Shown here in pieces: positions 44,219-47,200 of a DNA stretch of 64,000 nt (its first letter is position 1; each line of letters starts with the position of its first letter). Location of the stretch: positions 2,051,001-2,115,000 of the forward strand of contig NC_092677.1 of assembly GCF_964355755.1 (NCBI RefSeq), in the 5' to 3' direction. Both the position numbers and the translations under genes were made by a program. The notes under the pieces were generated by a model. The model was not told the DNA's origin. It did no database searches and saw only the letters and a program-made list of their open reading frames with translations. The DNA is from Antedon mediterranea. Lineage: Eukaryota > Echinodermata > Crinoidea > Comatulida > Antedonidae.

Positions 44219-47200
44219 TTATTTATTTATTATTCCATCGGCCGCTGAAAAGAGAAAGAGACACAAAAAATTATTTTCATTTTTACGTTCAGCAATTCAT
44301 TTCACTACTACAATTCAGAATTTTTTTTAAATGCAAATTTCCATTCTCTTATAACCAATTAAAGATTAAGAATTTGTTTATAAATGTACACTTACATGCG
44401 AGAGCTTCTTTTGCGTAAAACTTCACATCGATGTCTGTGTCCGTTTCCATTTCTACCAGACAAGGTTTGATTTCAGCTTTCACAATGCTATCAAAAGAAA
44501 AAGGAACAGGTTTGATTTGAGCTTGCACAATGCTACCAAAAGAAAAAGGTTTGATATGAGCTTGCACAATGCTACCAAAAGAAAAAGGAACAGGTTTGAT
44601 TTGAGCTTGCACAATGCTACCAAAAGAAAAAGGAACAGGTTTGATTTGAGCTTGCACAATGCTACCAAAAGAAAAAGGAACAGGTTTGATTTGAGCTTGC
44701 ACAATGCTACCAAAAGAAAAAGGTTTGATTTGAGCTTGCACAATGCTATCAAAAGAAAAAGGAACAGGTTTGATTTGAGCTTGAACAATGCTACCAAAAC
44801 AAAAAGGAACAGGTTTGATTTGAGCTTGCACAATGCTACCAAAAGAAAAAGGAACAGGTTTGATTTGAGCTTGCACAATGCTACCAAAAGAAAAAGGAAC
44901 AGGTTTGATTTGAGCTTGCACAATGCTATCAAAAGAAAAAGGTTTGATTTGAGCTTGCACAATGCTATCAAAAGAAAAAGGAACAGGTTTGATTTGAGCT
45001 TGCACAATGCTACCAAAAGAAAAAGGAACAGGTTTGATTTGAGCTTGCACAATGCTACCAAAAGAAAAAGGTTTGATTTGAGCTTGCACAATGCTACCAA
45101 AAGAAAAAGGAACAGGTTTGATTTGAGCTTGCACAATGCTACCAAAAGAAAAAGGAACAGGTTTGATTTGAGCTTGCACAATGCTACCAAAAGAAAAAGG
45201 TTTGATTTGAGCTTGCACAATGCTATCAAAAGAAAAAGGAACAGGTTTGATTTGAGCTTGCACAACGCTACCAAAAGAAAAAGGTTTGATTTGAGCTTGC
45301 ACAATGCTATCAAAAGAAAAAGGAACAGGTTTGATTTGAGCTTGAACAATGCTACCAAAAGAAAAAGGTTTGATTTGAGCTTGCACAATGCTATCAAAAG
45401 AAAAAGGAACAGGTTTGATTTGAGCTTGCACAATGCTATCAAAAGAAAAAGGAACAGGGTTGATTTCAGCTTGCACAATGCTACAAAAAGAAAAAGGAAC
45501 AGGTTTGATTTGAGCTTGCACAATGCTACCAAAAGAAAAAGGAACAGGTTTGATTTGAGCTTGCACAATGCTATTAAAAGAAAAAGGAACATTTGGAGTA
45601 ACAACATGAATTCATTCGTTCACATCATTTTGACCTACTTTGCATGGGAGTAATGTTTGCAATTATTTTGCCAACATTAAATTATACAGACTTACCTAGC
45701 ATCTTTTAGGGGAACCCTTTTTGGGGAGGTTGAGGGCTACATATAATAAATCAAATATGATTGAAATACGATAGGAATGAATAATAACTGACCTCGGTTC
45801 AATTAAAGGTAATACGATTGAAATTGTTTTTGCGACATTAAATCGTACATTGGCAACATTATCCTTGGCTAGACTGACAATGACAGGCATGAGTGACCTT
45901 GTCGTGATTTCTGGACCGCACACACCTGCCAACACGTTGATGCAGAATAAGCACGTCATACGATGTAGGTAATTGGAGTCACGGGACATTGCCAGAATCT
46001 TCGGAATGACTTGAGTATTAGCCCAATCTTTACCAAACTTCTCAACTAACTTTTTTAAGTTATTAGTAGCTGCCTCACGGATGGCAAAAACTGCAAAAAA
46101 ACAACATTACTTATTTACAAAAACACAAAATTGTACTTTACAAATTATTTGATGTAAATGGGGAATAATCTGCGACTTGCAGTCTACTTGCACCCGTTTG
46201 TCTGTCCACAACGATATTTTACTTAGCAAGAAAGGATACGAGTTGATATGAAAACAATACAACATATTTCTAAATGACTAGCAGAATATTCACTCAGTAT
46301 TTTACAAAAGAACGGTAAAACGTGTTCTCACCATGATCTATAAGCCACGTCATACAGAGACCATTCAGTTTTTCATCAAAGAAGTCAACGCCTAGTTGGC
46401 CAGCTAGCAGGGGCATGTACTCTATTATAGCCAGCCTTACTCTCCACTTGCTGTCTTCCGCCAGTTCAACTATTGCCGGTAGCAGAGACTGTGATAACTG
46501 CTGTATGCCAATTACTGTGTTTACACAGTCAAGATTACTGATGATGTTGAGTCGTACCTCAGGACATTCATCCTTCAATTGTGTTAGAAATAGTGGCAAC
46601 ATGTGCTCTATTGTTCTGTTCAAAAACAAAACCAATTTATTAGGCGTGTACCTTCTTCTTTCAAATTTTGTTTACATATTTATTGATCACTGAAATCTAT
46701 TTTGTATATGAAAGGAGAAAATAAATGTTGCTTTGAATTGAATTGAATTAGTCATTTTTATTTGCAATTGTTCTGGCGAGCTCTCATATAGGAGAGTATA
46801 AGTGTATGTAATTGGCCTTACTTGCTGTTAAGTTTATGAGATATTACTTACTTGTCCTTGCCTAATATTGGTGACAGTCCCATAATGACCGAGGCCAATG
46901 CACTTTTGACGTGTTGGTTGGCATCTATCACAAGATCCTACAACGAAACAAGTTCAAAAACTTTAATTTTTATCAAAATCAATGTAGAATACAATATGCA
47001 AGTACTAAGCAACGATTGCTAGCTGAAAATCAACTTGTAAGAAATGGTTCAATAAACAAAACATCACTTATATCTTGACTTAAGTAAAGAGATTGATAAA
47101 TTACTCTTATTTACCTTGACACATGGTAATATATTAACCATAATAAGTTGTTCTCTACTGTCCTCAGGTTTTAGATTCTCACAAAATACTTTTACTTTAT

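What the first reader, a model, noticed from the sequence alone, without database searches (positions are those of the whole stretch)
44396..45600. 25 in-frame decoy 3' splice sites in front of PP2A-A exon 11
Each 45/39-bp unit carries the pyrimidine tract, AG and first 24 bases of exon 11. Seen directly: the array from the farthest to the true acceptor is 1083 bp, open and in frame. Any acceptor used would give a protein with 0 to 361 added residues ([15 protein letters not shown] repeats) inside HEAT repeat 15 of an otherwise highly conserved scaffold. Frame was kept even though two unit lengths exist (45 and 39, both divisible by 3), which hints at selection or at a mechanism that keeps exonization harmless. 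The copies differ from the true exon at two Lys/Glu codons, so they are a homogenised family.
Basis: partly seen in the sequence, partly recalled or inferred. Interest (0 to 1): 0.92.

Follow-up and report, generated by a model that had tools for sequence, protein, structure and literature searches.

The report
Tandemly copied splice sites before PP2A-A exon 11
A short stretch spanning the edge of one exon of the PP2A scaffold gene has been copied 25 times in a row; the same thing has happened at other exon edges in this animal, usually in ways that could not give protein, so it is most likely a splice-site minisatellite that is spliced out rather than a device for making protein variants.

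Summary
The array is real and almost exactly as described: 25 decoy acceptors plus the true one, units of 45 bp (18) and 39 bp (7), 1083 bp, open and in frame. The reading of it as frame-selected decoys is not supported. It is one of a class already named in amphioxus: "mirages", minisatellites spanning an intron/exon boundary. I found a second mirage in the same gene (exon 6, 76/68-bp units; all seven decoys give premature stops), one at a transporter 5' splice site in the same window, and four more in a sample of 119 conserved exons and their neighbours (KIF3A-type and three in a CCT7-type gene). All 41 decoys of those six arrays would give premature stops. Once 45 and 39 are multiples of three, openness here is automatic, because the intronic part of the unit lacks A. 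Repeats carry 7 amino-acid-changing and 1 silent substitution types, showing no sign of protein constraint. The rate of boundary-spanning arrays is close to that expected from tandem duplications falling at random. Most likely the last acceptor is used and the array is intronic. Minor in-frame use of decoys is not excluded and needs RNA. No RNA or second haplotype was available.

The parts
44463..45591 (-). 45/39-bp tandem array spanning the 3' splice site of PP2A-A exon 11 (the finding)
44532..45570 (-). first exonic bases of the 25 decoy acceptors (outermost 45570, innermost 44532)
   Evidence: each decoy gives an in-frame full-length product
44396..44487 (-). true exon 11 (92 nt)
   Evidence: homology to human PR65
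44488..45792 (-). intron 10 (1305 nt), which holds the array
44219..54442 (-). PP2A-A (PPP2R1A/B-like) gene, 12 coding exons, 594 aa, single copy in the genome
48708..49131 (-). second mirage in the same gene: 76/68-bp units with 3' splice site and first ~50 nt of exon 6 (decoys 49100, 49024, 48948, 48872, 48796, 48728); all give premature stops
47546..47721 (-). downstream part of the second mirage: decoy 47667 and true exon 6 acceptor 47591
47722..48707 (-). reverse transcriptase fragment (non-LTR-like) that interrupts the second mirage; borders approximate
   Evidence: ORF 48777-47821; Pfam RVT_1 E=9e-6, below the curated cut-off
28394..28728 (-). 5' splice-site mirage of a transporter gene: true donor 28717, eight decoy donors 28676-28404, spacing 41/36; every extension is stopped in all frames
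   Evidence: neighbouring exon matches Pfam Sugar_tr

Best explanation
It is a 'mirage': a minisatellite born from a tandem duplication of a segment that happened to straddle the 3' splice site of exon 11, then enlarged and homogenised by unequal exchange or slippage. Because such a duplication leaves one intact boundary joined to the rest of the exon, it is nearly neutral as long as splicing keeps choosing that copy. The array is therefore intronic in nearly all transcripts, with acceptor 44487 used, probably through exon definition (the downstream donor and the body of exon 11, which decoys lack). The in-frame, open state is a coincidence of unit length plus a stop-poor pyrimidine tract. Shown: anatomy, class membership by structure, unproductive sister arrays, lack of protein-level constraint. 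Inferred: which acceptor is used, and why.
For: Array and intact gene; single-copy gene, no processed copy seen. Sister mirages: PP2A-A exon 6 (7 decoys, all premature stops), KIF3A-type exon (20 decoys, 70/68 bp, all stops), CCT7-type gene at three exons (6 decoy donors, all stops), transporter (8 decoy donors, all stops). So decoy sites with full signals are tolerated in conserved genes where their use would be harmful. Unit substitutions: 8 types, 7 non-synonymous, 1 synonymous, 0 stop, against 23% synonymous and 2.2% stop expected. Boundary-spanning arrays among 238 exon edges: 3 seen, 1.4 expected from random placement, P=0.17. Amphioxus mirages have the same anatomy, and RT-PCR suggested regular splicing (PMC3087553; PMC3902484).
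Against: No RNA data at all for this species. Splice signals of all 26 sites are essentially identical, so nothing in the signals themselves favours 44487; predicted local RNA accessibility does not favour it either. This is the only array of the seven found whose decoys are all productive.
Confidence: 0.8

Rival explanations
1. The decoys are used at appreciable rates and give a ladder of PP2A-A isoforms with 15- or 13-residue repeats at the start of HEAT 15, tolerated or functional; the acceptor counterpart of the human 6-16/IFI6 minisatellite with multiple splice donors.
For: All 25 decoys carry the same pyrimidine tract and TAG, and each gives a full-length in-frame product. The insertion falls at the HEAT14/HEAT15 junction and leaves the true helix start intact behind it. 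A donor-side human precedent is titled as such.
Against: Repeats show no protein constraint; comparable decoys elsewhere, including in the same gene, must be ignored or wasteful; amphioxus mirages were reported to splice regularly.
Confidence: 0.13
2. Selection kept the frame: only arrays in multiples of three could grow because decoys leak.
For: Both unit lengths are multiples of three.
Against: A 20-copy 70-bp array in a KIF3A-type gene and the 76/68-bp array in the same gene grew out of frame. Chance of the frame is about 1/9, with openness then automatic.
Confidence: 0.05
3. Collapsed or inflated assembly artefact.
For: Tandem arrays are prone to copy-number errors; no reads could be checked.
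Against: Units carry distinct variants and two lengths in an irregular order; the assembly is in 18 contigs; similar arrays occur in other genes. Copy number may still be off.
Confidence: 0.02

Closest known systems
Amphioxus 'mirages' (Adh3, globins BflGb6 and BflGb9, PGBD5, troponin C)
   Same: Tandem repeats spanning an intron/exon boundary, acceptor or donor side, with splice signals in many units, authentic boundary kept, cluster-edge units left out of homogenisation (PMC3087553; PMC3902484).
   Different: Probably another lineage (AT-rich genome; tektin closest to sea urchin); more copies here (26) than the 3 or 6 units of BflGb6 and 2-7 of PGBD5; in-frame open array; splicing not tested here.
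Human 6-16/IFI6 (G1P3) minisatellite with multiple splice donor sites
   Same: A minisatellite whose units each supply a splice site (known here by its title only; the paper itself was not held).
   Different: Donor side, not acceptor; there the sites are reported as provided to the transcript, here use is unknown.
Internal tandem repeats at human exon/intron boundaries in segmental duplications
   Same: Minisatellite expansion at boundaries altering gene structure (PMC2812944).
   Different: Recent human paralogues; exon and intron changes were seen at transcript level.

Membership tests
mirage (boundary-spanning minisatellite) | tandem repeat whose unit spans an intron/exon boundary | tested here: met
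   20 intronic + 25 exonic bases per 45-bp unit
mirage (boundary-spanning minisatellite) | splice signal present in many units | tested here: met
   TAG and pyrimidine tract in all 25 decoys
mirage (boundary-spanning minisatellite) | one intact authentic boundary at the end next to the exon body | tested here: met
   44487 joins exon 11 and gives 594-aa PP2A-A
mirage (boundary-spanning minisatellite) | interior units homogenised, cluster boundaries less so | tested here: met
   unit 3 (three differences) and the true copy are the most diverged; interior units near identical; a weak trend, since unit 1 matches the consensus
mirage (boundary-spanning minisatellite) | does not disturb regular splicing | not testable with these tools
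   no RNA held
mirage (boundary-spanning minisatellite) | length instability between haplotypes or somatically | not testable with these tools
   one haplotype only; the array is found once in the genome
splice-site minisatellite with used sites (IFI6 type) | several repeat-borne splice sites are used in mRNA | not testable with these tools
   no RNA held
splice-site minisatellite with used sites (IFI6 type) | use of repeat sites would keep a productive reading frame (my criterion) | tested here: met
   all 25 decoys productive
protein-coding VNTR under constraint | unit variation biased to silent changes | tested here: not met
   1 silent of 8 substitution types, 23% expected without constraint; small numbers

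The most novel reading that the evidence does not exclude
PP2A-A of this animal is made as a ladder of length isoforms with up to 25 extra repeat blocks at the start of HEAT 15, set by stochastic or regulated choice among 26 near-identical acceptors, and varying between individuals with array length.
Probability: 0.1. Interest if true: 0.75.

Novelty: new member of a known kind. Interest (0 to 1): 0.42.

Why it matters
Arrays of near-identical acceptors in front of one exon are a natural experiment on how the spliceosome chooses: signal strength is equal, so only order, distance and exon context differ. The wider result, that boundary-spanning minisatellites are common in this genome (seven at exon edges of four genes in about 240 kb), suggests that mirages are not a peculiarity of amphioxus and are a steady source of raw material for alternative sites and intron changes.

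Tried and rejected
Looked for a processed copy of PP2A-A that would record the acceptor used: none. Looked for a second copy of the array: none. Local RNA folding as a reason to hide decoys: no support, the true site is slightly less accessible. A tektin hit (L010) looked like a donor mirage but on reading seems to lie inside the intron. Organism by 18S or COX1: rRNA family searches failed, the 18S hit was a partial copy, no COX1 found. Genome note by size and chromosome number: none matched. A splice-site-targeted duplication mechanism was considered; 3 seen against 1.4 expected does not call for one, though the cluster of three in one CCT7-type gene is curious.

Full report
Observation. The window lies on a contig of a 354-Mb genome held in 18 contigs. 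On the minus strand it carries a complete gene for the PP2A scaffold subunit A. I assembled it from 12 coding exons, all with GT-AG introns, giving 594 residues of which 6-586 align with human PR65-alpha (Pfam PPP2R1A-like HEAT). It is single copy, with no processed copy found. In intron 10, Tandem Repeats Finder gives 44463-45591, period 45, 26 copies. Reading the strand, there are 25 decoy acceptors, 45570 to 44532, and the true acceptor at 44487; 18 units are 45 bp and 7 are 39 bp. Each unit holds 20 (or 14) intronic bases with the pyrimidine tract and TAG, and 25 exonic bases. The whole 1083 bp is open in the exon's frame.

Is the frame remarkable? If any decoy were used, the protein would keep its normal C-terminus with 15 to 361 extra residues. 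But the sequence itself explains this. The period must be a multiple of three (about 1 in 3) and the 6-bp deletion that makes the 39-bp unit must be too (about 1 in 3). After that the frame is open without further luck: with the exonic part fixed, all 20,000 shuffles of the intronic part before the AG stay open, because that part has no A, and the acceptor TAG is split across codons by the intron phase. Only 3 of 135 possible single substitutions in a unit make a stop. The opposite strand also has a 427-codon open frame across the array, as multiple-of-three repeats often do. Among the units there are eight substitution types: seven change the amino acid, one is silent, none is a stop; without constraint 23% silent would be expected. 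There is no sign that the encoded peptide is under selection, although the numbers are small.

Surroundings. The decisive finding is that this array is not alone. The same gene has a second acceptor array in intron 5: 76-bp (once 68-bp) units with the acceptor and about 50 bases of exon 6, at 48708-49131 and 47546-47721, split by a reverse transcriptase fragment. Its unit is not a multiple of three and every one of its seven decoys would give a premature stop. About 16 kb away a transporter gene has the mirror image: eight decoy donors, spaced 41 or 36 bp, downstream of the true donor at 28717. Every extension is stopped.

Genome sample. I fetched loci around matches to the tektin, kinesin and TCP1 chaperonin families and examined 119 homology-supported exons in about 179 kb of distinct sequence. 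A KIF3A-type kinesin exon has 20 decoy acceptors spaced 70 bp (once 68), all stopped within 9 to 50 codons. A CCT7-type chaperonin gene has donor arrays at three of its exons, spaced 93/90, 85 and 87/80 bp, all six decoy donors giving stops. So six sister arrays hold 41 decoys, none productive. The names KIF3A and CCT7 rest on reading the translated exons against remembered relatives plus the Pfam match, not on a separate test. Exon edges spanned by an array: 3 among 238 (the first CCT7 array was at an exon not among the scored matches), against 1.4 expected if units of the observed arrays (39 arrays, mean unit 43 bp) fell at random (P=0.17). No special attraction to splice sites is needed; this genome simply has many minisatellites, and duplications across a boundary survive because they leave one boundary intact.

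How it works, most likely. A tandem duplication across the intron 10/exon 11 boundary gave one decoy; unequal exchange or slippage enlarged and homogenised it. Unit 3, near the upstream end, is the most diverged; its QAE may be close to the founder, with the interior family (QAQ) and the true exon (KAE) each having changed once; human PR65 has QSE at this place. That history is inference. The spliceosome most likely keeps using 44487, since comparable decoys in conserved genes cannot be used productively. All 26 sites have the same pyrimidine tract and AG, and local folding does not favour the true one, so the choice should come from exon definition: the exon 11 body and its donor. The two decoy changes also remove GAA motifs that are present at the start of the true exon; whether these act as splicing enhancers is untested.

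Known relatives. Minisatellite-like duplications of intron/exon boundaries were named mirages in amphioxus Adh3 and described in globins, with both acceptor and donor versions, haplotype differences (6 and 3 units), and RT-PCR suggesting regular splicing (PMC3087553), then in PGBD5 with notes on Adh and troponin C (PMC3902484). The present array meets the structural tests. On the donor side a human minisatellite in the 6-16/IFI6 gene is described by its title as providing multiple splice donor sites; the article was not held, so I use it only as a lead. The host here is not established: the last exon of tektin-1 is 68% identical to its best PDB match, in entry 8snb (sea urchin sperm doublet microtubule, from my own knowledge of that entry), and 57% to the next chain (7ung, human by my knowledge). 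The genome is AT-rich, so an ambulacrarian, perhaps an echinoderm, is likely and amphioxus unlikely.

Verdict. Real, attractive, and a very clean example, but a member of a known kind whose frame is best explained by chance. The isoform idea is not excluded, and one RT-PCR would settle it.

Noticed in passing
47546-49131 (-): A second boundary-spanning array in the same gene at exon 6, 76/68-bp units, interrupted by a reverse transcriptase fragment; all decoys unproductive.
   Followed up: yes
28394-28728 (-): Donor-side array at a transporter exon: eight decoy GTAAGT donors downstream of the true one.
   Followed up: yes
L032:39-1526: KIF3A-type kinesin exon preceded by 20 decoy acceptors spaced 70 bp.
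   Followed up: yes
L075 (minus strand), oriented positions 672-945, 1685-1770, 2814-2981: CCT7-type gene with donor mirages at three exons; why three in one gene is unexplained.
   Followed up: partly
G000:C3, about 19.6-25.1 Mb: Many similar matches to the same two myosin head exons spread over 5.5 Mb of one contig: perhaps a dispersed family of myosin gene copies or pseudogenes.
   Followed up: no
3989-4407, 32456-32882, 38051-38775, 39398-39642: Other long minisatellites (19-, 8-, 22- and 27-bp units), not at recognised exon edges; the genome is rich in such arrays.
   Followed up: no
L002 and other C2 sites: Several 18S rRNA 3'-end copies scattered on one contig; the one read (L002) is only a partial 18S, its upstream sequence looking unrelated.
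   Followed up: no
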